Origin: Coriobacteriia bacterium
Lineage (GTDB): Bacteria; Actinomycetota; Coriobacteriia; Coriobacteriales; RUG033
Direction of reading: 5' to 3'
NCBI GenBank assembly: GCA_015655215.1
Contig: JAATFL010000012.1
Location: forward strand, 62,001 to 126,000
Length of the DNA: 64,000 nt
Both the position numbers and the translations under genes were made by a program. The notes beneath the pieces are model-generated. The model had not been told where the DNA came from. It did no database searches and worked only from the letters and a program-made list of their open reading frames with translations. This document shows positions 50,938 to 64,000 of this stretch, in pieces. Position 1 is the stretch's first letter. Every line of letters starts with the position of its first letter.

Positions 50938-53900
50938 GTGAGTTGCTCGATGAGCCAGGATAACGCACGGGGCTTCACGCTGATGGAGATGCTCGTCTCC
51001 GTCGCGATCATCGCCATCCTCGCCGCCATCGCGATCCCCCTGGTGGCGAACCTCAACACCAGCCTGAACATGCTCAAAGCCGATTCGTACGCCAAGGAGA
51101 TCTACTATGCGGCGCAGAATCGGCTCGCCTCCATGGAGGCGACGGGGGAGCTCGACCAGCTGACGCTTCCCGACGCCGACAAGCTTACCGTCGAGCCGGC
51201 CGACTACGCGCAAAACGCCGGTAGCGACGTGGACGACGGATGGCAGAGCCTCTATCGCCTCGATAGCGATGGAACGGATGACGACGCGGTCGTGAGTCGG
51301 ATCATGGATGCCGCGAGCGTGAGCGACGGCGCAATCGGCACGGGAAGCTACATCATCGAGTTCTCCCCCTCGAGCGGGGAGGTCTACAGCGTCTTCTACT
51401 CGGAGAAGACCGATCTGACCTATGGCGACGTACGGGCGCTCGACGAGGGACAGGGCGGTCGGAGCAAGGCAAACCGCACCTCCGGACTCATCGGGTATTA
51501 CTGCGGGGGCAGCATCAGGGTCGTCGGCACGTCCGTCAAGCTCACGCCCACGGTCTCCCTCGTCAACGCCGAGGAGCTGTACGCCCACATCACCTGCGAT
51601 GGCAGCCCTCTGTCTGCCGGCGTCTCCAAAGAGCTCACAGCGACACTCACCTTGACCGATGAGCAGAGCGGTAACTCGTGGTCGAAGGATATATCGACCG
51701 CTTTCCTGACGGACGGCACGTCGGAGGAAGACGTCGTGCTCGATAGCATGCAAACCGGTGAATCGTTCGCCCAGATAACTGATGCGAATGGCGATGGGGC
51801 CACCATATCCGCCGGCGAGATCGCCCCTGGGGACGATGTCACGGCAACGGTGACGGTGAGATACAAGGGCAAGGGCACCATCGCCACGGCGACCTCGAAC
51901 ACGGAGAACAGCCTGTACCAGAGCCTTGGCGTCGAGGACGGCATCCTCACGGCCAAGGTCGCCAACGTCAGGCAGCTTGACAATCTCCGGGATGGCACGT
52001 GTTCGGCGGTCAAGGGGAGCTTCGCCAAAGTCGTGCAGACGGGCAGCATCGACTTCGATGCGACCACGTGGAGCGTCGATGCTGCAGGAGACGCGCCGCT
52101 TTCGTCCGGCACCATCGCCTGGAACAAGGCGAACGTGGCGGGGTGCCCTGACACCGGTTACGTCAACCCGTTGGGCGCGGGCATCGGCGATGGAGGTGCC
52201 GATGGGTTCACACCCATCAGCGCCATCGCAACGCAGTGGTCGTACGATGGCCAGGGCAACTCCATCAGGAACCTCTACGTCGTCGGCGCGCAGACCATCG
52301 GATCGACCAGTACCGGAACGGGGCTCTTCGGCACCATGACCGGTGCCATCTCCAACATCGTCCTGGTGGATCCGGTCGTCATAGGCGGTACGTACACCGG
52401 CGCCCTCGTCGGCAGCATGAAGGGACCCGCCGTCACCAACTGCGGTGTCTATCTGGAGCCCGACTCCGCGGGGAGCTACAGTGCGGTGACGGCTCGATGC
52501 ACGGTATCCGCATACGACGGCTCCGTCTGCGTGGGTGGTCTCATCGGGGACTGTGGAGGTGCTACCGTCACCACGTGCTTCGCCGCCATCAACGTGCTTC
52601 CCGTCGCCAACGGCTCCATCACCGAGACGGGAGGGCTGATCGGCCGGTTCCTCACGGAGAGTTCCAGTGCGATCTCGAATTCCTATGCCTCGGGCGATGT
52701 CACCGCATCGAGCGTTGCCGGGGGACTTGTCGGAGAGGTCTATGGCGCATCGCAGCAGGCCTGGGATACGCAGAGCGGCATATCGGACTGCTACTCGACG
52801 TCGGACGTCACCGCCGACACCCGCGGTGGTGGACTCATCGGTGAGAGCCTCTCCACACGGCCAACCATCACGGGCAGCGCGGCATATGGTTACGTGACCA
52901 CTTCGAGCGGTGATCTCGACCTCCAATCCTCCGGTGGGTTCATCGGCTATGACGGCGCTGGCGGGGCAACCCTCGTTGGCTGCTCATATCTTTCCCAGAC
53001 CGGTTACAACGATAGCTACGCCAACCCCTGGGACGGTGCGGGTCTTGCGGCCACGTCCTACGATGACATGGCCAACGCTGCGACGAACACGTTGACCGCG
53101 GCCAACAGCCACCCATATGACAGCGCGCTCGCCTCCACGGCCTTTCCCTTCACGCCCGTGCTGGCAAACCACTATGGGGACTGGCCGGTGAAGGTAGAGG
53201 TGAAGCCGACGCTCGTCTACTACGAGAAGTACCAGCACACGTCCTCGGACGATACGGTCACGTACTCGTACGGCTACTATGCCGCCAACACGAGCACCGC
53301 AAGCGCCAGCAGCCTGGGGGAGCTGGCGCTCGACACCCTGGAGACCGGCGAGGCGATGGCCGCAAGCGGTGACATCGTCGTCGAGGATGGCTATGCGCTC
53401 ATGACGAGCTCGGCGGTCGACAGCGGTGCCATCGGCTACTCGCTCAACGGCGGACAGTCCTCAACCTTCCAGGTCAGCACCACGCCGACCGACGATGCCA
53501 ACACCCTGGTGGCCCTGACGTCCGCTCCGGTGCCGCTCACGCTCACCTCTACCGGCGATGCATCCACGGCCGTCACGCAGGCCTATCTCTATCAACTCCC
53601 CTTCGCCTTGCAGGAGCCGGACCGTACGTCAGGGTCATCGAGCTTCTACGATGACCTCACGCTGACGATGCCCTCGCAACAGGTCTACACGTACTACTAC
53701 TGCGGGGACTTCGCCGAGACGTCCATCAACCCGGATGCGAACGGGTCCACGTCGGCACCGAAGGCGGGGGATCTCACGGTCCTGGTCCGCAGCGCGCGCC
53801 AACTCAACGCGCTCGGCCAACGGGACTTCTATTGGAACACGGACAACAGCAACGGTTGGACCCTTCGTTTCGAACAGGGCTGCGACATCAGCTTCTCCGA

Positions 53901-54906
53901 TTACGTCACGACCTACTGCAGCCAGCCATTCGACCTGACGAGCACCACGGGCACGTATGGCAACAAGCCCATCGGCACGGTGGATGACGCCTTCAGCTTC
54001 GACTACGACGGCGGCACGGTCGCCGTGCGTGACTACAACCATGACGCGGTCTCCGCCCCTGATGCCGGCTATGAGATACGGGACTACTGCCTTGTGTCCG
54101 GCGACCAGTTCGTCGGCTTGTTCGGCGAGGCGTCCGGCGGCACCATCGGCAACGTGCACCTGACATCGTCGACGACCGGGACGGCCTCGGCATCCGTGGT
54201 CTCGACGTACAGCGCGACGGGTGCCTCGGGAACGGGTGCCGTGGGTGCGCTCGTGGGACTCCTCTCCGTCTACTCGGGCAGCACCGGAGCGCAGGTGTCG
54301 AACTGCAGCGTCGTGGGGTACCGGGTGGAGTTCACCAACGACGATGCGAGGGGGCATACGGCCATGGACTCCTATAACGCCGCGGCCGGCGGCCTGGTCG
54401 GGTACAACATGGGCGTCGTGAGCGGCAGCCTGGCCGACAACTACGTCGTCCGCATCACGGCGTTCAACCAGAAGGCTCCGTTGGAGTCCATCGGCGGTCT
54501 GGTCGGGTCGAATGCCGGGACGATCGCCAACTCGACGGTTCTCAGCGATCGCGTCCCCTCCGGCGCATCCGAGCTCCAATATCGCGTCAACACCGGGACG
54601 TCCAAGGCGACGGTGAGTTTCGGTGGCATCGCGGGACGTTACTATGCCCAGTGGACGGATGTGACCCTGACCGCCTCGATCTCAGGCAGCACGTCCCGGT
54701 GCATCATGACCAGCGCTGCGGCCGCGGCCGGGACACAGGGAACCGTCGAGTACTACGGCATCGCCAACGGCGCCACGGGCAATATGGGCAACACCGGCAC
54801 CTACGGCAACTCCTTGAAAGGCTACGCGATCGATGCGACCAACGCCTTTAACAGAGGACTCATCTTCACCACGACGCCCGATTCCTCACGGGGGACCCTC
54901 CGATGA
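50938..54906 (+). CDS. Giant prepilin-like surface protein with GLUG-type repeats
   Basis: A 1322-residue protein that begins as a type III-signal prepilin: 12-residue leader ending in Gly, then FTLMEMLVSVAIIAILAAIAIPL with Glu at +5 of the mature protein. After the roughly 60-residue pilin helix is an exported beta-rich region with two similar blocks. Each starts with a RQLDNL or RQLNALG motif (near residues 342 and 950) and leads into GLUG-like repeats such as GGLIGDCGGATV, GGLVGEVYG and GGLVGYNMG. No membrane anchor or sortase motif is present at the C-terminus. I choose the GTG at 50938 because GAGGGA lies 7 bases upstream; the frame is open upstream to 50569. It overlaps the next minor-pilin gene by four bases. 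Likely a pilus-associated adhesin; this is inference. Confidence 0.8.
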   Translation: MSCSMSQDNARGFTLMEMLVSVAIIAILAAIAIPLVANLNTSLNMLKADSYAKEIYYAAQNRLASMEATGELDQLTLPDADKLTVEPADYAQNAGSDVDDGWQSLYRLDSDGTDDDAVVSRIMDAASVSDGAIGTGSYIIEFSPSSGEVYSVFYSEKTDLTYGDVRALDEGQGGRSKANRTSGLIGYYCGGSIRVVGTSVKLTPTVSLVNAEELYAHITCDGSPLSAGVSKELTATLTLTDEQSGNSWSKDISTAFLTDGTSEEDVVLDSMQTGESFAQITDANGDGATISAGEIAPGDDVTATVTVRYKGKGTIATATSNTENSLYQSLGVEDGILTAKVANVRQLDNLRDGTCSAVKGSFAKVVQTGSIDFDATTWSVDAAGDAPLSSGTIAWNKANVAGCPDTGYVNPLGAGIGDGGADGFTPISAIATQWSYDGQGNSIRNLYVVGAQTIGSTSTGTGLFGTMTGAISNIVLVDPVVIGGTYTGALVGSMKGPAVTNCGVYLEPDSAGSYSAVTARCTVSAYDGSVCVGGLIGDCGGATVTTCFAAINVLPVANGSITETGGLIGRFLTESSSAISNSYASGDVTASSVAGGLVGEVYGASQQAWDTQSGISDCYSTSDVTADTRGGGLIGESLSTRPTITGSAAYGYVTTSSGDLDLQSSGGFIGYDGAGGATLVGCSYLSQTGYNDSYANPWDGAGLAATSYDDMANAATNTLTAANSHPYDSALASTAFPFTPVLANHYGDWPVKVEVKPTLVYYEKYQHTSSDDTVTYSYGYYAANTSTASASSLGELALDTLETGEAMAASGDIVVEDGYALMTSSAVDSGAIGYSLNGGQSSTFQVSTTPTDDANTLVALTSAPVPLTLTSTGDASTAVTQAYLYQLPFALQEPDRTSGSSSFYDDLTLTMPSQQVYTYYYCGDFAETSINPDANGSTSAPKAGDLTVLVRSARQLNALGQRDFYWNTDNSNGWTLRFEQGCDISFSDYVTTYCSQPFDLTSTTGTYGNKPIGTVDDAFSFDYDGGTVAVRDYNHDAVSAPDAGYEIRDYCLVSGDQFVGLFGEASGGTIGNVHLTSSTTGTASASVVSTYSATGASGTGAVGALVGLLSVYSGSTGAQVSNCSVVGYRVEFTNDDARGHTAMDSYNAAAGGLVGYNMGVVSGSLADNYVVRITAFNQKAPLESIGGLVGSNAGTIANSTVLSDRVPSGASELQYRVNTGTSKATVSFGGIAGRYYAQWTDVTLTASISGSTSRCIMTSAAAAAGTQGTVEYYGIANGATGNMGNTGTYGNSLKGYAIDATNAFNRGLIFTTTPDSSRGTLR

Positions 54907-55709
54907 AAAGCCGCATGGGCAGGATGTCGCGCAAGCTTTCCGGCAACCAGGGTGCCTCCATGGTCGTGGCTCTCCTCTTCTTCGCTCTCTGTGCATCGGT
55001 GGCAGCCGTCATCCTCATGGCGGCATCCACCAACGTGGACAGTACATCACAGCAACGCGATGACGACGAGGCGTATCTTGCGGTGAGTTCCGCGGCGCAG
55101 ATGCTCAAGGCGGACCTCGTCGGTCAGGATCCCTCGTATTCCGTATCGGTCAGGACCAAGGTCTACAGCTGTGGCTTGCCGCATGGTGACGGGGGCGTCC
55201 AAGCGGGATTCCCCGTGGTGACCTTCGCGGCCGCCGGTGGAGGTGTTGTGCAGAGGACGCCGCTCATGGTCGTCATGCAAGACGGCATCACCGCGATCGT
55301 CAGCGGTGCATCCGAATACTCGACGACGCTCATCGTGTCGGCCGACGACTTCGAATCGGTGACCGCCACGCTCGCCATGGACAACGACTTCGACATCACG
55401 ATCACGTTGGAACCATCGGCGGCGGATTCGTACTCCCCGTACACGATGACCCTATCGGCTACGGCAACGCCATCCGCCACCGCCACCACGGACACATCGG
55501 TTACCGAAGACACCAACCCCCATGATGCGAGCGCGAGGGTCTGGGTATGGGCGAGCACCGTATCCTATTACGAACGCACCCAATCCAACGAGGGCAGGGA
55601 TGGCTATGGTTCCTACCAGGTGGCCACCACGGGCTACACGGCGACCACCGTCACCGAATCGTTCGGCGTAACGTGGGCCAACGTGGCGCTTTCGAAGGGG
55701 GCGGCGTGA
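54903..55709 (+). CDS. PilX/GspK-like minor pilin component
   Basis: A 268-residue protein with a short basic leader and a hydrophobic helix (about residues 18-38, beginning ASMVVALLFF) after a Gly at 17. The Glu at +5 of normal pilins is absent, as in GspK and several PilX-type proteins that cap the pilus. The remainder is Thr/Ala/Ser-rich beta-type sequence. It overlaps the giant pilin-like gene by four bases and is followed within two bases by another minor pilin. It probably belongs to the tip complex. Confidence 0.65.
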   Translation: MKSRMGRMSRKLSGNQGASMVVALLFFALCASVAAVILMAASTNVDSTSQQRDDDEAYLAVSSAAQMLKADLVGQDPSYSVSVRTKVYSCGLPHGDGGVQAGFPVVTFAAAGGGVVQRTPLMVVMQDGITAIVSGASEYSTTLIVSADDFESVTATLAMDNDFDITITLEPSAADSYSPYTMTLSATATPSATATTDTSVTEDTNPHDASARVWVWASTVSYYERTQSNEGRDGYGSYQVATTGYTATTVTESFGVTWANVALSKGAA

Positions 55710-55710
55710 C

Positions 55711-56484
55711 ATGATGAAATCAGCGCGATCGCGCGTGCTCTCCAGTGCGGGGGAGAGTCTCGTCGAATCCCTCGCCGCATTGCTCATCTGCTCGATGGCG
55801 ATCGCCTTGCTCATGGGTGCGGTCGTGACGGCGGCCAAGATCAACTCCACGGCGATCACGGCACAGGAGACCCTCGAACGTGCGCAATCTGCCGCAGAGT
55901 CCTACACATCGACGAAATCAAGCACCCGTGCGGTATCCGTGACGACGCAGGATGGGGAAACGTCATTGGGCACGTACACCGTCATTTACTATGGCGAGGA
56001 CCAGAGTGGCCTTGCGGACTCGCTCGTCGCCTACAAGTACGGTGGCGCTTCCGCCCCGAGCTACCTTGCCGGCGCCCAGGCGTTGGTCGCCTCCAATCCC
56101 ACCACCTATGCGTCCACCGATGCCGGGACGAAGGCGCTGTCCGCGGCATATGCGAGAGCCTACGGGGGAGAGTTCCCAAAGCTCACCTCAGCCGAGCTCG
56201 CGCTCTCCACGGCAGCGGTCCCGTCCACGTACTGGAAGCCCATCCATGCGAGCAACGGGGCGTTGATCCTGTGCGCGACCACCACCACCGCATCGGTCTC
56301 GACGGGTACGTCCGCGGCCCAGAACACGGTTCTCATCTACTACGATGGGACGTATTACGCGTACCTGAACCCCCTACACGGCGATAAGTCGATGTGGATC
56401 GGCAATGGCTCCTTCGACGTCTCGATACTCGGCAACCCCACCCGGACCGATGTCTATGGCCAGTGGTGGAAGGCGGTGTCATGA
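55711..56484 (+). CDS. Minor prepilin with a non-standard +1 residue
   Basis: A 257-residue protein whose N-terminus MMKSARSRVLSSAG is followed by ESLVESLAALLICSMAIALL, a typical pilin helix. If cleavage occurs after Gly14, Glu sits at mature +5 as required, but +1 is Glu and not Phe or Met. The rest is a Ser/Thr/Tyr-rich globular domain. It is coupled to the next minor pilin gene (ATGA overlap) and resembles a GspI-type tip subunit by position. Confidence 0.65.
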   Translation: MMKSARSRVLSSAGESLVESLAALLICSMAIALLMGAVVTAAKINSTAITAQETLERAQSAAESYTSTKSSTRAVSVTTQDGETSLGTYTVIYYGEDQSGLADSLVAYKYGGASAPSYLAGAQALVASNPTTYASTDAGTKALSAAYARAYGGEFPKLTSAELALSTAAVPSTYWKPIHASNGALILCATTTTASVSTGTSAAQNTVLIYYDGTYYAYLNPLHGDKSMWIGNGSFDVSILGNPTRTDVYGQWWKAVS

Positions 56485-57143
56485 TGGCGCCTTCGGCCCG
56501 TGGACCTCGTCGTCGCACGCTCTCGTCTGCTGGGCATCGACATCGTCCGTCTTCCATGTCGAGCCCATCGCCGGGGTTCACCCTCATCGAGACGCTTGCG
56601 GCGATCGTCATCATCGTCCTCGTCTCGGGCCTCATCGCCACCGGTGCGTCCGTGGCGGTGCGCGTCATGCATCAATCGACCCAGGTATCCGATGCCGCCG
56701 TGCTCGCCTCGACGCTCAACACGCGAATGGGCGATATCCTGCGGTATGCCTCGGTCGAGGTGGATGGGAGTGGCTCGGTCCAGACCACGACGTCAGGCGA
56801 CGTGCTCTTCGACAGCACCGAGGTCACCGATGCCGACGGCGCCACCCTGAGGGCCGCCCATCTTACGACCGTCCTTGCGGATGGTGCGGGGCATAACCCC
56901 ATCGTCATCCGAGAGGGAGAAGGTATTGCCACCATTGATATTCCCATCGTGAACAGCGGCTCATACGGCGAACTCGCCATCACGCACTTCACGCTATCAT
57001 ATGCAGGCGGGGTCTTCACCGGCAGCTATACCATCGTCCCGGTAGATGAGGTCTCCTCTGCATCCCCGTCATTCTCACGAGAGGTCACCTTCTCGTATCG
57101 GTCCCTGGTCGATGCGACGGATGTGTCCGGCCACAGCGGTTGA
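56481..57143 (+). CDS. Minor prepilin (GspJ/PilW-like)
   Basis: A 220-residue prepilin with a classical signal, PG followed by FTLIETLAAIVIIVLVSGLIA, where Gly32 would be the leader end and Glu37 the +5 residue. The 32-residue basic leader is long; an in-frame ATG at 56556 would give only seven residues but has no clear ribosome site. It overlaps the preceding gene by four bases and is 89 bases before pilB. Fourth member of the minor pilin run. Confidence 0.75.
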   Translation: MMAPSARGPRRRTLSSAGHRHRPSSMSSPSPGFTLIETLAAIVIIVLVSGLIATGASVAVRVMHQSTQVSDAAVLASTLNTRMGDILRYASVEVDGSGSVQTTTSGDVLFDSTEVTDADGATLRAAHLTTVLADGAGHNPIVIREGEGIATIDIPIVNSGSYGELAITHFTLSYAGGVFTGSYTIVPVDEVSSASPSFSREVTFSYRSLVDATDVSGHSG

Positions 57144-57232: not shown

Positions 57233-58933
57233 TTGGCCAAGTACACCAAACTCGGTGATCTTCTCACCTCGACCGGCGTCATCACCGAAGAACAGCTCGC
57301 TCAAGCCCTGCAGCTGCAGCGGGTCTCCAAGAAGCGTCTCGGACAGGTGCTCGTCGACAACGCGATCATCAGCGAGATGCAACTCATCGAGGCCCTCCGC
57401 CTGCAGCTTGGCGTCGAGTTCATCGACCTGGGCAAGGTCGCGATCCCTTCCGAGATGACCAAGATGCTTCCAAAGTCCATTGCCCGCAAGCATCAGATGG
57501 TGCCCGTCAAGGTGATGGGAAACGATCTCTACATCGCCATGGTCGACCCTCTCAACTTCATCGCCATCGAAGAGGCCAAGGTCGCCACCAAGCGGCATAT
57601 CATCCCCATGATCTCGACCTCGGCCGCGGTGAGTCGGGCCATCGTCACCCTCTACGGCAACGAGGGCGTCCGTCTCGCCATCGAGGACATGCAGCGCGAG
57701 TCCGCGGAGGACGGGGTCCGGATGCTCGGCAGGGACGCCAACCTCATCGGCGAGGACGATAGCTCGTCGGCTCCGGCCATCCGCCTCGTCAACTCGATCA
57801 TCGAGCGCGGCATCGGCGAGCGCGCAAGCGACATCCACCTTGAACCGCAAGAGGACTCGATGGCGGTGCGCATGCGCATCGACGGCATCATCCATGCCGT
57901 CCTCACCGTGCCCAAGGAACTGCAGCCCTCGCTCATCTCACGCATCAAGATCATGTGCGGCATGGAGGTCACCGAACGTCGCATACCACAGGACGGTCGT
58001 GCGATCGTGCGCATCAAGATGCGTGAGATCGACCTGCGCGCCTCCACCATCCCCACCATCTACGGCGAGAAGGTCGTCTTGCGGCTGCTCGACAAGAACG
58101 CGCAGATCCTCACCCCCAAGGGTCTGGGCATCGAGGGCGAGAACCTCGAGAAGTACGAGAAGCTGCTCGTGCTCAAGCAGGGCGTCATCCTCATGGTGGG
58201 TCCCACGGGTTCGGGTAAGTCCTCGACGATGTACACGATGCTCGACCAACTCAACACCGAGGCCGTCAACATCGTCACGCTCGAGGACCCGGTCGAGTAC
58301 AGCATGGCCGGTATCAACCAGGTGCAGATCAACGAGAAGCTCGGCATGACGTTCGCCTCGGGGCTGCGGTCCATCCTGAGGCAGGACCCCGACATCATCG
58401 GCGTGGGCGAGATCCGCGATGGCATCACCGCCGAGATCGCGATGCGTGCCGCCATCACGGGCCATCTGGTGCTCTCCACCATCCACACCAGCGGCGTCCT
58501 GTCCGCCCTCGACCGTCTTGCCGACATGGGTGTGGCGCCCTATATGATGTCGAGCGCCCTCGAGGGACTCGTCTCGCAACGTCTCGTGCGTCGCGTGTGC
58601 CCGCAATGCCGTGAGAGGTATCAACCCACGGCCGAGGAGCTGCTGCGCGTCGGATTGCCCGCCGAGGAAGCGGGACATCTCATGCTCTACCGGGGGAAAG
58701 GATGCCCCGAATGCTTCGGTACCGGCTATCGTGGTCGTATCGCCGTGTTCGAGATACTCCTCTTCGATGACGCGATTCGCCATGCCGTCCACGAGCAGCT
58801 TCCACGGGCGGATCTCCTCGCGGCCATCAAGGACTCGGGATTTACCTCACTTGCGGATAACTGCCGGGTTCTCCTGCGCGAGGGGGTCACCACCGCGCAG
58901 GAGATGATCCGTACCATCAACATCACCGACTAG
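57233..58933 (+). CDS. pilB: Type IV pilus extension ATPase PilB with MshEN domain
   Basis: A 566-residue hexameric ATPase that drives pilin polymerisation. The first 60 residues hold two consecutive copies of the MshEN motif (KLGDLLTSTGVITEEQLAQALQ and RLGQVLVDNAIISEMQLIEALR), the c-di-GMP-binding module of some PilB/MshE proteins. The ATPase core has Walker A GPTGSGKSS (323-331) and the Walker B-region GEIRDGITAEIA near 392-403, where the usual ETA is ITA. A zinc site is formed by CPQC (456-459) and CPEC (491-494). The start is a TTG at 57233 with AAGGAG just upstream. Next is pilT, 13 bases later. Confidence 0.94.
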   Translation: MAKYTKLGDLLTSTGVITEEQLAQALQLQRVSKKRLGQVLVDNAIISEMQLIEALRLQLGVEFIDLGKVAIPSEMTKMLPKSIARKHQMVPVKVMGNDLYIAMVDPLNFIAIEEAKVATKRHIIPMISTSAAVSRAIVTLYGNEGVRLAIEDMQRESAEDGVRMLGRDANLIGEDDSSSAPAIRLVNSIIERGIGERASDIHLEPQEDSMAVRMRIDGIIHAVLTVPKELQPSLISRIKIMCGMEVTERRIPQDGRAIVRIKMREIDLRASTIPTIYGEKVVLRLLDKNAQILTPKGLGIEGENLEKYEKLLVLKQGVILMVGPTGSGKSSTMYTMLDQLNTEAVNIVTLEDPVEYSMAGINQVQINEKLGMTFASGLRSILRQDPDIIGVGEIRDGITAEIAMRAAITGHLVLSTIHTSGVLSALDRLADMGVAPYMMSSALEGLVSQRLVRRVCPQCRERYQPTAEELLRVGLPAEEAGHLMLYRGKGCPECFGTGYRGRIAVFEILLFDDAIRHAVHEQLPRADLLAAIKDSGFTSLADNCRVLLREGVTTAQEMIRTINITD

Positions 58934-58945
58934 GGGGTCGAGAGC

Positions 58946-60001
58946 ATGGGTCTGGTTGACGATATCGTGCGTCACGCATCGCAAGAGCGCGCCTCCGACG
59001 TGCACATCGCCGCGGGGCTGCCCGTTCGCTTCCGGGTGGATGGCAGCCTCTTCGACGCCGACACCACGCCTCTCACCTCGGCCGATTGTCGTGCGATATG
59101 CGAGGAGCTCGTCGTCTCTGGTCGCGAGAGGCTCGACATGATGGATGAGATCGACTTGGCGGGCACCTACGGTGAGGGTATCCGGTGCCGCGTCAACATC
59201 TATCGCAGCAGGGGAAGCCTCGTCGTGGCACTGCGCCTCCTCAGTGAGGAGATACCTTCGCTCGCGAGCCTCGGCCTGCCGCCCGTCATGATGGAGTTCC
59301 CCACGTACCGCAAGGGTATCGTCATCATCACCGGCGTGACGGGTTCGGGCAAGTCAACCACCCTGGCGTCCCTCCTCAACGAGGTCAACCACACTCGGCC
59401 CGACCATATCATCACGCTCGAGGACCCCATCGAGTACCTGTACGTCCCGGACAAATGCAGCATCGACCAACGGGCGATCGGATATGACACGGCGAGTTAT
59501 GCCGATGGGTTGCGCGCCTCGCTTCGCGAGGATCCCGACGTGATCCTCATCGGCGAGATGCGCGATCTCGACACCATCGAGACGGCGCTTACCGCCGCCG
59601 AGACGGGTCATCTCGTCTTCGCCACGTTGCACACCAGCTCGGCCGTCGACTCCATCGACCGCATGGTGGACGTGTTCCCCGCAGGACGTCAGAAGCAGAT
59701 CCGCCTCCAACTCTCGCAGACCATCAAGGCGGTGGTGTCGCAGCAGCTGCTCGTGCGCAGGGAGGGGACCGGGCGCATCGCCGCGTGCGAGGTGATGATC
59801 GTGAATCCGGCCATTCGCAACCTCATACGCGAGGACAAGACACCGCAGATGCAGAACACCCTCGCCACCTCGGCGCAAGAGGGAAGTATCACGATGGACA
59901 ACATGCTCATACAGATGGCGAAGGCGAAGAGCATCTCACGGGCCACGGCCGTCGCGGCGGCCCATGACCCCGAGTACGTGAATCGTTTGGTGCGCGCTTA
60001 G
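58946..60001 (+). CDS. pilT: Type IV pilus retraction ATPase PilT
   Basis: A 351-residue secretion ATPase that depolymerises the pilus. It has Walker A GVTGSGKST (130-138), the Asp box DPDVILIGEMRD, the His box GHLVFATLHTSSA, and the PilT-specific signature AIRNLIRE (289-296), which separates it from PilB. Length is typical. The presence of PilT predicts retractable pili, allowing twitching or DNA uptake. Confidence 0.95.
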   Translation: MGLVDDIVRHASQERASDVHIAAGLPVRFRVDGSLFDADTTPLTSADCRAICEELVVSGRERLDMMDEIDLAGTYGEGIRCRVNIYRSRGSLVVALRLLSEEIPSLASLGLPPVMMEFPTYRKGIVIITGVTGSGKSTTLASLLNEVNHTRPDHIITLEDPIEYLYVPDKCSIDQRAIGYDTASYADGLRASLREDPDVILIGEMRDLDTIETALTAAETGHLVFATLHTSSAVDSIDRMVDVFPAGRQKQIRLQLSQTIKAVVSQQLLVRREGTGRIAACEVMIVNPAIRNLIREDKTPQMQNTLATSAQEGSITMDNMLIQMAKAKSISRATAVAAAHDPEYVNRLVRA

Positions 60002-60018: not shown

Positions 60019-61227
60019 ATGAAGACGTTCAGATATGAGGCCCAACGCAAGGACGGTGAGGTCGACCACGGCATCGTCGAGGCCAACAACCGCGATGAGG
60101 CCATGGGCAAGGTCCGTGCCGACTTTCCCGTCGTCAACCTTCTGGTGGAGACGGGCGGCAGCCGTGACATCGACCTCAGCTTCGGGGGACATCGCACGAC
60201 GGAGAAGGTCCTGGCGCTGATGTGCAACCAGTTCGCCATCATTCTCAAAGCGGGGTTTCCCATCGTGCACACCGTGGAGCTCGTGTCCGACCAGGTCACC
60301 GACAAGGCCATGGGACGTACCCTCAAGGACGTGGCGGGCGACGTGGCCGCCGGGTATGGTCTGGCAGATAGTCTGGCCAACCACGACCGGAGCCTTCCGC
60401 CCACGCTCATCGAGACGATTCGAGCTGGTGAGAGTTCCGGTAACCTGGAAGGCGTCTTCAGGCAGCTTGCCGGCTATTACGACGCCAAGTCGAAGACGCA
60501 CGCCAAGGTGATCTCGGCGATGATCTACCCGAGCTTCGTCGTCATCGTCGCCATCGTGGTCATCATCATCATCATGGTGTTCGCCGTGCCCACGTTCTCC
60601 TCGACGTTCGCGAAGATGGGCGTCGACCTGCCATGGATCACCAAGGCCATGATCGCCATCTCGAACTTCTTCGTCAGCTACATCCTCGTCATCATCATCG
60701 CCATCGCCGCGGTCGCTCTCGGCTTGCGGATGTGGGGGCATCGTGAAACCGGCAGGATGTACTATGCCAAACTCGCGCTGAGGTTGCCGATATTCGGCCA
60801 CATCAGCCTGATGAGCGCGGCGAGCCAGTACGCCTCCACCATGTCGGTGATGCTAGGTGCGGGGCTGCCGGTCATCGAGGCCGTAGAGGTGACGGGGCGC
60901 TCTTTGAGCAACCACTACCTGAGCACGCGCCTACGTGGCATCATCCCCGACCTCGAAGCGGGCAAGCGCCTGGGGCTGTGCCTTGAGAACGTCAAGATGT
61001 TCCCCGATCTCATCAACGAGATGACCGCGGTGGGGGAGGAGACCGGCGCGCTCGAGACCACGCTCGCCACCATCGCCCAATACTATGGCAACGAGGTGAA
61101 CGTCGCCACCACACGAGCGCTCTCCATCATGGAACCGGTGATCATCCTCATCCTCGCGGTGTTCGTGGTGGGTATCCTGTTTTCCGTGTACCTTCCTCTG
61201 TTCAGCATGTATGGCAGCGTGAGCTGA
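60019..61227 (+). CDS. pilC: Type IV pilus inner-membrane platform protein PilC
   Basis: A 402-residue polytopic protein with two T2SF domains (around residues 60-190 and 265-395), three membrane segments, and the KAGFPIVHTVELVSDQV and GAGLPVIEAVEVTGRSLSN family motifs, one per domain. It couples the ATPases to the growing fibre. It follows pilT by 17 bases and is followed by pilA after a promoter region. Confidence 0.93.
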   Translation: MKTFRYEAQRKDGEVDHGIVEANNRDEAMGKVRADFPVVNLLVETGGSRDIDLSFGGHRTTEKVLALMCNQFAIILKAGFPIVHTVELVSDQVTDKAMGRTLKDVAGDVAAGYGLADSLANHDRSLPPTLIETIRAGESSGNLEGVFRQLAGYYDAKSKTHAKVISAMIYPSFVVIVAIVVIIIIMVFAVPTFSSTFAKMGVDLPWITKAMIAISNFFVSYILVIIIAIAAVALGLRMWGHRETGRMYYAKLALRLPIFGHISLMSAASQYASTMSVMLGAGLPVIEAVEVTGRSLSNHYLSTRLRGIIPDLEAGKRLGLCLENVKMFPDLINEMTAVGEETGALETTLATIAQYYGNEVNVATTRALSIMEPVIILILAVFVVGILFSVYLPLFSMYGSVS

Positions 61228-61375: not shown

Positions 61376-61762
61376 ATGGGGAACATGAAGCAATCACTGA
61401 GCAAGACCAAGGGGAAGAAGGGCTTTACCCTGATGGAGATGCTGATCGTCGTAGCCATCATCGCCATCTTGGTCGCCATTGCGATTCCAATCTTCAACAC
61501 GCAGTTGAACAACGCCCGTGTGCAGACCGACGCGGCGAACGTACGTTCGGCAAAGGCCGAGGCGGCCGTCACGTACATGACGGCGAACACGACTCTGACC
61601 ACCGCCGCTACCTACTACTTCAATGCGTCTGCCGGCACGCTTGCCACTGCCAAGACTGGCATAGCGGGGTACGGGCAGGCGTCGGGCGAGTCGGGTCAGA
61701 TCGTCCAAGTCGTGATCGCCACGGATGGCACGGTCACCACGACATGGGTGGCTGCGGCATAG
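61376..61762 (+). CDS. pilA: Major type IV pilin
   Basis: A 128-residue prepilin with a 16-residue basic leader ending KKG, then FTLMEMLIVVAIIAILVAIAIPIF with Glu at +5. The mature globular part is short, about 60 residues, with Ala/Thr-rich beta-strand-like sequence and no disulfide cysteines, so the fibre should be thin and unlike Gram-negative PilA with its C-terminal loop. A terminator hairpin follows. It is the only small pilin in the locus and has its own promoter, which marks it as the major subunit. Confidence 0.92.
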   Translation: MGNMKQSLSKTKGKKGFTLMEMLIVVAIIAILVAIAIPIFNTQLNNARVQTDAANVRSAKAEAAVTYMTANTTLTTAATYYFNASAGTLATAKTGIAGYGQASGESGQIVQVVIATDGTVTTTWVAAA

Positions 61763-61910: not shown

Positions 61911-62726
61911 TTGATCTACCAAACCCCCGGCATCCTCATCTACACCATTGCGGTCACCGCGCTCATCGGGCTGTGCATGGGGAGCTTTCTCAACTGTCTC
62001 GTCTGGCGCCGCACGAACGGCGAGTCCGTCCTTGCGGGGCGGAGCCACTGCACGACGTGCAACCACGTGCTCGGACCCCTCGACCTCATCCCCGTGGTGA
62101 GCTGGGTGGCGCTCAGGGGCCGCTGCCGTCACTGTGGTGCGCACGTCTCCGTGCGCTATCTGCTCGTCGAGGTGCTCACCGCCGTCATATACGTTTCCAT
62201 CGTGCTGGGTTTCGACCTCACCGTCGAGGCGGTGGCGATGCTCTTTCTGGCGAGCATCCTCATCTGCATCACGCTCACGGACCTGGATGACTCCACCATT
62301 CCCGACGGCTTCATCGTCGCCGGTGTCGTGGGCGCCCTGGTGTTCGCTGCCGCCCCCGCCATCATCGACGACTCCTCGATGCTCGCGCTGCTTCTCGCAT
62401 GGGGCGGTGCGCTGGCGTGCGGCCTGTCGGTCTCGTTACCGCTGTTCGTCCTCTCGCTCATCATGGACAGGGTGCTCAAGCGTGACTCGCTGGGCGGGGG
62501 CGATATCAAGCTCTTCTTCATGATCGGCATGTACTTCTCGTGGCAGGTCAATCTGTTCACCCTCATCGTTTCCTGCGTGCTTGGCATCGCGTTCTCGGTG
62601 ATCTGGTTCAAGGGGAGACTCGAGACGGGGAGGCAGTTCCCCTTCGGGCCGGCCATCGCCGCCGCCACGTGGGTCTCGATGCTCGTGGGTCCTGCTTGGA
62701 TCGGCTGGTACACCGGGTTGTTCTAG
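61911..62726 (+). CDS. pilD: Prepilin leader peptidase/N-methyltransferase PilD
   Basis: A 271-residue inner-membrane A24 aspartic protease that cleaves prepilins after Gly and methylates the new N-terminus. The methylase part has the two Cys pairs CTTC (47-50) and CRHC (72-75). The protease has its two aspartates in ITLTDLDDSTIPDG and GGGDIKLFFMIG, with about eight membrane segments. The start is a TTG with GAGGGGAG upstream. One peptidase is present for all five prepilin-like genes of the locus. Confidence 0.94.
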   Translation: MIYQTPGILIYTIAVTALIGLCMGSFLNCLVWRRTNGESVLAGRSHCTTCNHVLGPLDLIPVVSWVALRGRCRHCGAHVSVRYLLVEVLTAVIYVSIVLGFDLTVEAVAMLFLASILICITLTDLDDSTIPDGFIVAGVVGALVFAAAPAIIDDSSMLALLLAWGGALACGLSVSLPLFVLSLIMDRVLKRDSLGGGDIKLFFMIGMYFSWQVNLFTLIVSCVLGIAFSVIWFKGRLETGRQFPFGPAIAAATWVSMLVGPAWIGWYTGLF

Positions 62727-62893: not shown

Positions 62894-64000
62894 ATGAACA
62901 TCGTCGGCATGGATATCGGCAATGGTGATTTGAAGCTGGTGATGCGTCAGCGGGGTACCACTCGTCTGATCGTCGAACGTATGCCGAAGAACCTCGTGGA
63001 CAACGGCCGCATCGTCGATCCTGATTCGATGTCGCGGTTCATCAAGCAGGTCAAGCGCAAGAACAGGATATCGTGGTCGGACTGCGCGCTCGTCCTCCCC
63101 TCGAACGTCACCTACTTCCGCAGTCTCACCGTGCCGGTGATGTCCGAGGAGCAACTCAGGTTCAATCTCCCGTATGAGTTTCGCGACTACGTGGCCAACG
63201 ATTCCGACGAGTACTTCTACGACTACGCGGTCACGGCGATACGCCTCCCCGTCCCCACGGGCGGCGAGGCGCCTGCCGCGTCGTCTGCGGCGGGCAAGGA
63301 GGCATCGGATGCGGACGGCTCTGCGGAACCGATGCCCGAGGTGGATGATGGCGCCGACGGCTCGGCGGTCTTGCCGGGCATCGACATCTGCGCGGCGGCC
63401 GTCGAGAAGGTGGTCATCGACCGATACACCGACATCCTCAGGCACGCCGGATTCAAACTGAGGCTCGCCCTCCCGCGTGAGATGGCATACATCGGGCTGC
63501 TCCGACGCTATCTCGTCGACCATCCCAACGAGGCGAAGAGAGAGTTCTGCATCGTCGACATAGGGTTCTTCCTCACCACCGTCGACATCTACGCGGGCAC
63601 CACGTACGTCGCGTCGCATACGCTCGAGCTGGGTTGCTTCCAGGTCGACCAGGTGATATCCGAGGTCATGGACGTCGAGGAGCACGTGGCGGCGAGCTAT
63701 CGCTACTCCAACCATCACGAGGTGCTCTTCAACCCGAAGTGCGTGGTGGTGTACGAGCGCTTCTGGACGGAGATCGTGCGCATCCTCAACTTCTACAATT
63801 TCGATAACCCCGACAACAACCTGCACGACATCTACTTCTGCGGCGGTGGCGCGGTGCTCGCCGCGCGCGTCAAGCACCTGGTCGACCTGGGAATGCATTC
63901 GAGCCTGACGATGCACGGCATCGCCGACCTCGTCCCGGGGGATGTGGAGCGGACGGACAACCTCTCATCATGCTCGCTCGCCTTGGCCATGGCCCTGACG
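62894..64000 (+). CDS. pilM: Type IV pilus assembly protein PilM (5' part, continues beyond window)
   Basis: An actin-like cytosolic protein that docks to PilN and links to the ATPase. The visible 369 residues start with MNIVGMDIGNGDLKLVMRQRG, an actin-fold phosphate-1 site, and contain FCIVDIGFFLTTVDIYAGT (phosphate 2) and DIYFCGGGAVLAARV (adenosine site). Between residues about 117 and 155 is an Ala/Asp/Glu-rich insert that typical PilM proteins lack. pilN and pilO would be expected immediately to the right of the window edge. Confidence 0.9.
   Translation, partial: MNIVGMDIGNGDLKLVMRQRGTTRLIVERMPKNLVDNGRIVDPDSMSRFIKQVKRKNRISWSDCALVLPSNVTYFRSLTVPVMSEEQLRFNLPYEFRDYVANDSDEYFYDYAVTAIRLPVPTGGEAPAASSAAGKEASDADGSAEPMPEVDDGADGSAVLPGIDICAAAVEKVVIDRYTDILRHAGFKLRLALPREMAYIGLLRRYLVDHPNEAKREFCIVDIGFFLTTVDIYAGTTYVASHTLELGCFQVDQVISEVMDVEEHVAASYRYSNHHEVLFNPKCVVVYERFWTEIVRILNFYNFDNPDNNLHDIYFCGGGAVLAARVKHLVDLGMHSSLTMHGIADLVPGDVERTDNLSSCSLALAMALT

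What the first reader, a model, noticed from the sequence alone, without database searches (positions are those of the whole stretch)
57233..57410. PilB with two tandem MshEN c-di-GMP motifs
The first 60 residues contain two consecutive copies of the 24-residue pattern (K/R)LGxxLxxxxxIxxxxLxxALxxQ that forms the MshEN c-di-GMP site in MshE-type ATPases. This points to c-di-GMP control of pilus extension. Near the Walker B region the usual ETA is ITA, which could affect catalysis.
Basis: partly seen in the sequence, partly recalled or inferred. Interest (0 to 1): 0.6.

Follow-up and report, generated by a model that had tools for sequence, protein, structure and literature searches.

The report
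Pilus motor with c-di-GMP sensor
This gene makes the motor protein that extends a bacterial surface filament (a type IV pilus), and its front end is a complete, ordinary sensor for the signal molecule c-di-GMP; the sensor is of a well-known kind, with one residue that predicts unusually tight binding and one unusual change in the motor's central pore.

Summary
PilB (57233-58933, +, 566 aa) begins with two 24-residue MshEN motifs (residues 6-29 and 35-58) separated by 5 residues, the published layout of ONE c-di-GMP site. It exceeds the curated cut-off of NCBIfam NF053729 (59.5 versus 38 bits). All ligand-contacting positions are kept. The only change is Lys for Arg at the first position, which published work links to tighter binding (KD 6-53 nM). 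The genome holds 9 GGDEF and 7 EAL matches and no PilZ. Among 296 genomes of its class, 103 have PilB; all 103 also have the MshEN motif and GGDEF domains, while PilZ occurs in 2. So c-di-GMP control of pilus extension is well supported by comparison, though binding is untested. The catalytic Glu (E393) is intact; I398 replaces the pore-loop-1 Glu (E400 of Geobacter PilB), thought to contact PilC. It is Glu in 29 of 29 fetched PilB relatives, yet variable in the sister motor PilT, so a catalytic defect is unlikely. The window's PilC has lost 4 of 13 near-invariant basic residues, a post hoc hint of compensation. Overall: a new member of a known kind, of modest interest.

The parts
57233..58933 (+). 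pilB: type IV pilus extension ATPase, 566 aa, TTG start
   Evidence: ORF; Pfam MshEN + T2SSE; aligned end to end with T. thermophilus PilF and Geobacter/Myxococcus PilB
57248..57319 (+). MshEN motif I, residues 6-29 (starts with Lys)
57320..57334 (+). 5-residue spacer between the two motifs
   Evidence: no gap or insertion in residues 6-58 in 29 relatives
57335..57406 (+). MshEN motif II, residues 35-58
57407..57667 (+). MshEN C-terminal subdomain (Pfam MshEN, residues 59-145), holding D105 (57545-57547), which aligns with Asp108 of MshE, the Gua2 contact
   Evidence: PMC5013675 section 4
57761..58912 (+). T2SSE ATPase core, residues 177-560; Walker A GPTGSGKS at residues 323-330 (58199-58222)
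58409..58411 (+). catalytic glutamate E393 (GEIRD), intact
   Evidence: equivalent to E395 of G. metallireducens PilB
58424..58426 (+).
58946..60001 (+). pilT: retraction ATPase (TIGR01420, 421.8 bits over the 319.1 cut-off)
60019..61227 (+). pilC: platform protein; has lost 4 of 13 near-invariant basic residues (61, 84, 149, 156)
61376..61762 (+). pilin with class III signal
61911..62726 (+). prepilin peptidase PilD
62894..64000 (+). PilM-like ORF (named by eye), running 12 bases past the window end, followed on the contig by PilN-like and PilO/GspM-like ORFs
50941..54906 (+). very large prepilin-like protein (1321 aa) with sub-threshold GLUG motifs
54903..57143 (+). three minor-pilin-like genes (GspK-like, ComGE-like, and one with a prepilin N-methylation motif)

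Best explanation
This is the type IV pilus extension motor of a Gram-positive-type bacterium, gated by c-di-GMP through an N-terminal MshEN domain. Shown: the complete two-motif MshEN sequence, a complete motor core, a complete pilus operon, and c-di-GMP synthesis and breakdown enzymes elsewhere in the genome. Inferred: each 24-residue motif holds one guanine of a single c-di-GMP, with K6 stacking on Gua1; binding repositions the N-terminal subdomains on the hexamer and favours pilus extension. The Lys at the first position predicts a KD of tens of nM or less rather than about 500 nM. I398 does not touch catalysis; it removes one acidic residue from the pore that grips PilC, probably a tolerated and perhaps compensated change.
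For: Domain model over cut-off across its full length. phmmer of residues 1-146: MshE 8.6e-16 and G. metallireducens PilB 4.2e-23. Ligand columns are more conserved than the rest of the subdomain in 29 relatives: 9 of 12 invariant versus 6 of 49, p 4.5e-5. Model: four helices with local pLDDT about 80, Foldseek matches 5HTL (MshE with c-di-GMP) at 6.7e-4 and c-di-GMP-bound PilF GSPII-B chains at 0.007-0.015. Lys at position 1 is natural in PilF GSPII-B (KD 6 nM; 150 nM as K167R), D. geothermalis PilB2 (13.5 nM) and C. thermophilum PilB (53 nM) (PMC11731258, passages). 9 GGDEF and 7 EAL matches in the genome. In 296 genomes of the class, PilB 103, all 103 with the MshEN motif and GGDEF; PilZ in 2. 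Motor residues E393, E355, R269, R284, H411 and H418 invariant.
Against: No binding or pilus data exist for this protein. The best Foldseek match by E-value is PilF GSPII-A (9G1W, 1e-4), which the PilF paper reports does not bind c-di-GMP, so fold alone does not prove binding. Mean pLDDT of the model is only 55 (2-sequence alignment). In C. perfringens PilB2, c-di-GMP bound but did not change ATP hydrolysis (review PMC11656802, passages), so the output step may differ. Motif II has Ala where the consensus has Gly (Gly in 26 of 29 relatives, Asp in 2, Lys in 1). The co-occurrence is not corrected for kinship. PilB scores 558 bits against the 675.65 cut-off of the PilB equivalog model. No GGDEF match lies on the window's contig.
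Confidence: 0.65

Rival explanations
1. The domain binds c-di-GMP, but the output is not faster pilus extension: it tunes PilB stability, localisation or another process such as exopolysaccharide production.
For: C. perfringens PilB2 binds without a change in ATPase rate, and mutations in M. xanthus PilB MshEN change protein levels (PMC11656802, passages). A second MshEN-motif protein in this genome is an NfrB-like glycosyltransferase.
Against: In V. cholerae the MSHA pilus is reported to be directly controlled by c-di-GMP (PMC7096442, abstract start in the listing); here the gene lies in a full pilus operon with pilT and pilC.
Confidence: 0.25
2. The domain is a fold relic, kept for hexamer architecture, and no longer binds c-di-GMP (as in XpsE or PilF GSPII-A).
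For: Non-binding members exist (PMC5013675 section 12; PMC11731258), and the best fold match is one of them.
Against: XpsE lost many key residues at once; here all are kept, and they are the conserved columns in 29 relatives.
Confidence: 0.06
3. I398 cripples the motor: PilB is a weak or dead ATPase in this organism.
For: Glu in 29 of 29 fetched PilB relatives and in the five solved homologues printed; 6 unique departures at otherwise invariant columns, as many as the most divergent relative.
Against: E393 and all mapped nucleotide-binding residues are intact; the paper says D398 or E400 is conserved, and the D398 equivalent (D396) is kept; the site varies freely in PilT of 20 relatives; a PilT-like ATPase of another genome in the phylum has the same Ile (L050).
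Confidence: 0.05
4. The ITA codon is an assembly or binning artefact of a draft genome.
For: The genome is 78.7% complete in 38 contigs; no close relative is at hand: the only other genome of the family has no PilB.
Against: GAG to ATC needs three changed bases in one codon with the frame intact; the ORF has no other sign of damage.
Confidence: 0.04

Closest known systems
MshE of Vibrio cholerae (MshEN domain, PDB 5HTL)
   Same: Two 24-residue motifs, 5-residue spacer, Leu/Gly/Gln ligand positions, and the Asp of the C-terminal subdomain
   Different: Lys instead of Arg at the first position of motif I; Ala instead of Gly at the turn of motif II
PilF GSPII-B of Thermus thermophilus (PDB 8PDK)
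   Same: Lys at the first position of motif I, which the authors tie to very high affinity
   Different: PilF has three GSPII domains, and its second motif starts with Leu and is one residue shorter; the window's has Arg and full length, in a single domain
PilB of Geobacter metallireducens (PDB 5TSG/5TSH) and Myxococcus xanthus (3JC8)
   Same: Full-length architecture: MshEN, ATPase core, Walker A, GEIRD, His box, four Cys (456, 459, 491, 494)
   Different: Pore-loop-1 Glu (E400 in Geobacter) is Ile398
PilB2 of Clostridium perfringens
   Same: Gram-positive pilus motor with an MshEN domain that binds c-di-GMP (review PMC11656802, passages)
   Different: Not aligned here: its sequence was not at hand

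Membership tests
MshEN c-di-GMP-binding domain | Two 24-residue motifs with a 5-residue spacer | tested here: met
MshEN c-di-GMP-binding domain | First residue R, K or L, then LG, two Leu and Gln in each motif (extended consensus of PMC11731258) | tested here: met
   K6 L7 G8 L22 L26 Q29 and R35 L36 G37 L51 L55 Q58
MshEN c-di-GMP-binding domain | Asp of the C-terminal subdomain contacting Gua2 (MshE Asp108) | tested here: met
   D105, by the equal-length match of query 6-113 with MshE 9-116; Asp in 29 of 29 relatives
MshEN c-di-GMP-binding domain | Four-helix N-terminal subdomain | tested here: met
   Helices 5-13, 19-32, 36-42, 48-59; Foldseek to 5HTL 6.7e-4
MshEN c-di-GMP-binding domain | Measured binding of c-di-GMP | not testable with these tools
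   needs ITC, DRaCALA or DSF
Type IVa pilus extension ATPase (PilB) | Walker A, catalytic Glu, Asp-box Glu, two Arg fingers, His box, four Cys | tested here: met
   G323-S330, E393, E355, R269, R284, H411, H418 and C456/459/491/494 invariant in A1; mapped to Geobacter numbering by an offset of 2
Type IVa pilus extension ATPase (PilB) | Acidic residue in pore loop 1 (D398 or E400 of Geobacter PilB) | tested here: met
   The paper's wording is D398 or E400: the D398 equivalent is kept (D396), the E400 equivalent is lost (I398)
Type IVa pilus extension ATPase (PilB) | Curated cut-off of NCBIfam TIGR02538 | tested here: not met
   558 bits against 675.65; still the best-scoring model. The name PilB therefore rests on architecture and operon
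Type IVa pilus extension ATPase (PilB) | Operon with retraction ATPase, platform protein, pilin and prepilin peptidase | tested here: met

The most novel reading that the evidence does not exclude
In this lineage the grip between the pilus motor and its platform has been rebuilt: PilB lost the pore-loop-1 glutamate and PilC lost several basic residues of its first cytoplasmic domain. At the same time the sensor gained the Lys form of the MshEN site and so a switch set at low nanomolar c-di-GMP. More widely, in this class (where PilZ is nearly absent and, if it is Coriobacteriia, flagella are too) a large c-di-GMP enzyme repertoire serves mainly the pilus.
Probability: 0.15. Interest if true: 0.5.

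Novelty: new member of a known kind. Interest (0 to 1): 0.3.

Why it matters
c-di-GMP control of pili is established mainly in Gram-negative bacteria. Here every one of 103 pilus-bearing genomes of one class carries the MshEN motif together with GGDEF enzymes, while PilZ, the classical receptor, is found in 2 of 296 genomes. That makes a clear prediction of what c-di-GMP does in a group with almost no known receptors. The Lys variant gives a numerical test (KD of tens of nM or less), and the pore-loop change gives a natural test of how PilB drives PilC.

Tried and rejected
Rejected: ITA as a catalytic change (wrong residue; see above). Rejected: two MshEN sites (the two motifs are halves of one). 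Rejected: an orphan sensor without signal (GGDEF and EAL enzymes are present). A c-di-GMP riboswitch before the operon, as recalled for C. difficile: no Rfam family reached its gathering score anywhere in the window.

Led nowhere: the genome-contig scan with the single protein gave one locus, an Omnitrophota MAG with 49% identity, so no named near relative; the class is unnamed by every call, and 'Coriobacteriia' is my inference from recall, never tested. A family search found only one other genome, without PilB. Plasmid and phage searches gave only distant GspE/PulE-type homologues or no match. The viral-contig scan gave one relative, too few for a good model. One literature search on a conserved glutamate found only a paper I did not open.

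Pattern counts told in full: GEIRDxIT occurs in 3 of 396 genomes of the phylum: this PilB, a PilT-like ATPase (L050) and an unrelated frame (L048). The wider pattern with any of F, L, I, M, V occurs in 34 of 296 class genomes at 36 places. I opened 15 besides the window's own: 1 PilT-like ATPase (L059, Val, and its TGH is lost too), 14 unrelated. 20 places were not opened; none lies on a PilB place listed, a list that was itself cut.

PilC hint: 4 of 13 basic near-invariant columns lost versus 8 of 197 others (p 0.003). This was chosen after seeing the data, rests on one lineage, and the window is the most divergent row (12 losses in all); I treat it as a hint only. 20 of the 29 relatives were used for PilT and PilC.

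Full report
Observation. The open reading frame at 57233-58933 (+) encodes 566 residues from a TTG start; AAGGAG lies 6 bases upstream. Its first 58 residues hold KLGDLLTSTGVITEEQLAQALQLQ (6-29) and RLGQVLVDNAIISEMQLIEALRLQ (35-58). NCBIfam NF053729 matches residues 6-58 over all 53 positions at 59.5 bits (cut-off 38). As Wang et al. 2016 describe (PMC5013675; abstract and sections 4, part 1, and 12 read), two 24-residue motifs with a 5-residue spacer make one site for one c-di-GMP.

Ligand site. Of the residues that contact c-di-GMP in MshE (first R, L, G, two L and Q of each motif, and Asp108 of the second subdomain), all are present (K6 L7 G8 L22 L26 Q29; R35 L36 G37 L51 L55 Q58; D105) except that Arg9 is Lys6. 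In 29 relatives fetched from the class (55-62% identity) position 6 is Arg in all 29, so the Lys is peculiar to this genome. The published consensus has since been widened to R/K/L at this place: Thermus PilF GSPII-B (Lys) binds at 6 nM and its K167R mutant at 150 nM, and the Lys-bearing domains of D. geothermalis PilB2 and C. thermophilum PilB bind at 13.5 and 53 nM (PMC11731258, passages). The change therefore predicts tighter, not weaker, binding. Two further departures from the consensus, T12 in motif I and A44 in motif II, are at non-contact positions. Across the 29 relatives 9 of 12 ligand columns in residues 4-64 are invariant against 6 of 49 others (p 4.5e-5), and no relative has a gap or insertion in residues 6-58.

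Fold. AlphaFold2 on a two-sequence alignment (window plus L091) gave a weak model overall (pLDDT 55), but the first 50 residues averaged about 80 and form the four expected helices together with residues up to 59. Foldseek found 17 MshEN-type chains before any unrelated one, among them MshE with c-di-GMP (5HTL, 6.7e-4) and c-di-GMP-bound PilF GSPII-B. The best by E-value, PilF GSPII-A, is a non-binder, so the fold does not by itself prove binding.

Motor and operon. The protein aligns end to end with solved PilB and PilF. It scores below the cut-off of the PilB equivalog model (558 versus 675.65 bits), though that is its best model. It is followed by pilT, pilC, a pilin and a prepilin peptidase, then PilM-like (named by eye), PilN-like (sub-threshold Pfam) and PilO/GspM-like (sub-threshold T2SSM) frames, and preceded by minor pilins and a 1321-residue prepilin-like protein. 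The genome (1.70 Mb, 78.7% complete) has one PilB and one PilT by this search.

The ITA. McCallum et al. 2017 (PMC5424180, passages) name E395 of Geobacter PilB as the catalytic glutamate; it corresponds to E393 here, which is intact, as are E355, R269, R284, H411 and H418 (numbering by an offset of 2). I398 corresponds to E400, which they place in pore loop 1, with PilC modelled in the pore; they state that D398 or E400 is conserved across most family members, and the D398 equivalent (D396) is kept here. Position 398 is Glu in 29 of 29 relatives, in the five homologues printed and in L091. In PilT of 20 relatives the same site is D, E, A, R, S, Q, K or N, so the position tolerates change. A PilT-like ATPase elsewhere in the phylum also has Ile there (L050). 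In line with that, the window's PilC lacks 4 of 13 near-invariant basic residues, all within residues 61-156, against 8 of 197 other near-invariant positions (p 0.003, post hoc, one lineage; 20 of 29 relatives used).

Signal and receptor census. Own genome: 9 GGDEF matches. Of 8 opened, 5 have GGDEF/GGEEF and 3 are degenerate; 7 EAL matches, 7 of 7 with an E-x-L motif (EAL, or EVL in one) and 6 of 7 with the DDF/DDY motif by simple pattern. No PilZ. Two MshEN-motif proteins: PilB and an NfrB-like glycosyltransferase beside a WecB-type epimerase (38.6 bits in the genome search; 34.0, below the cut-off, when the ORF is scanned). Class: of 296 genomes, 103 have PilB at E <= 1e-100, 105 have the MshEN motif at E <= 0.001 (103 over its cut-off), 188 have GGDEF, 2 have PilZ. 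All 103 PilB genomes are in the MshEN and GGDEF lists; MshEN without PilB: 2; GGDEF without PilB: 85; neither PilB nor GGDEF: 108 (Fisher p 1.7e-27 without correction for kinship). In the window's own order, the 34 PilB genomes have a median of 12 GGDEF matches (the scoring limit), and the 78 others with any GGDEF a median of 3. Exceptions: 4 PilB-less genomes of the order reach 12, and one PilB genome has only 2. The tools leave the class unnamed; I take it for Coriobacteriia from recall. For that class a survey reports no flagellar genes (PMC10746217, passages), which would fit c-di-GMP serving pili rather than flagella.

Literature. Searches for Coriobacteriia with type IV pili (6 papers) or c-di-GMP (3), Eggerthella with GGDEF (3) or type IV pil (19, 12 listed), and MshEN with Actinobacteria (6) showed no title on c-di-GMP control of pili in this group (listings only, apart from passages of PMC8669469 and PMC10746217). 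PMC8669469 notes an NfrB homologue in Eggerthella lenta. MshEN in pilus motors as such is long known (PMC5013675; review PMC11656802, passages).

Verdict. A sound observation of an established domain in its usual place. New here are a class-wide pattern, one residue that predicts high affinity, and a misread pore residue that may be worth a test. New member of a known kind.

Noticed in passing
L068:1084-3081 (-) (G000 contig C32, near 11 kb): NfrB-like glycosyltransferase with a C-terminal MshEN-like motif, next to a WecB-type UDP-GlcNAc 2-epimerase: a possible c-di-GMP-controlled exopolysaccharide pair in a Gram-positive-type genome; a homologue in Eggerthella lenta is already mentioned in PMC8669469.
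   Followed up: partly
window 50941-54906 (+): A 1321-residue prepilin-like protein (class III signal at its start, sub-threshold GLUG motifs), far larger than usual pilins, perhaps a tip adhesin; L091, a contig with the same minor pilin-pilB-pilT order, also has a large ORF at that place.
   Followed up: partly
L090:13-4656 (+) (G000 contig C15): A 1547-aa protein (open frame 1777) with three GGDEF-like domains and one EAL domain; of the two GGDEF-like domains opened, one has an intact GGDEF signature.
   Followed up: partly
class-wide, 296 genomes: PilZ is almost absent from the class (2 of 296 genomes, both of one genus) although 188 of 296 have GGDEF domains.
   Followed up: partly
L059 (G242): A PilT-like ATPase with Val at the pore-loop-1 site and AEMAQL where relatives have AETGHL, so the first His-box residue is missing; possibly an inactive paralogue.
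   Followed up: no
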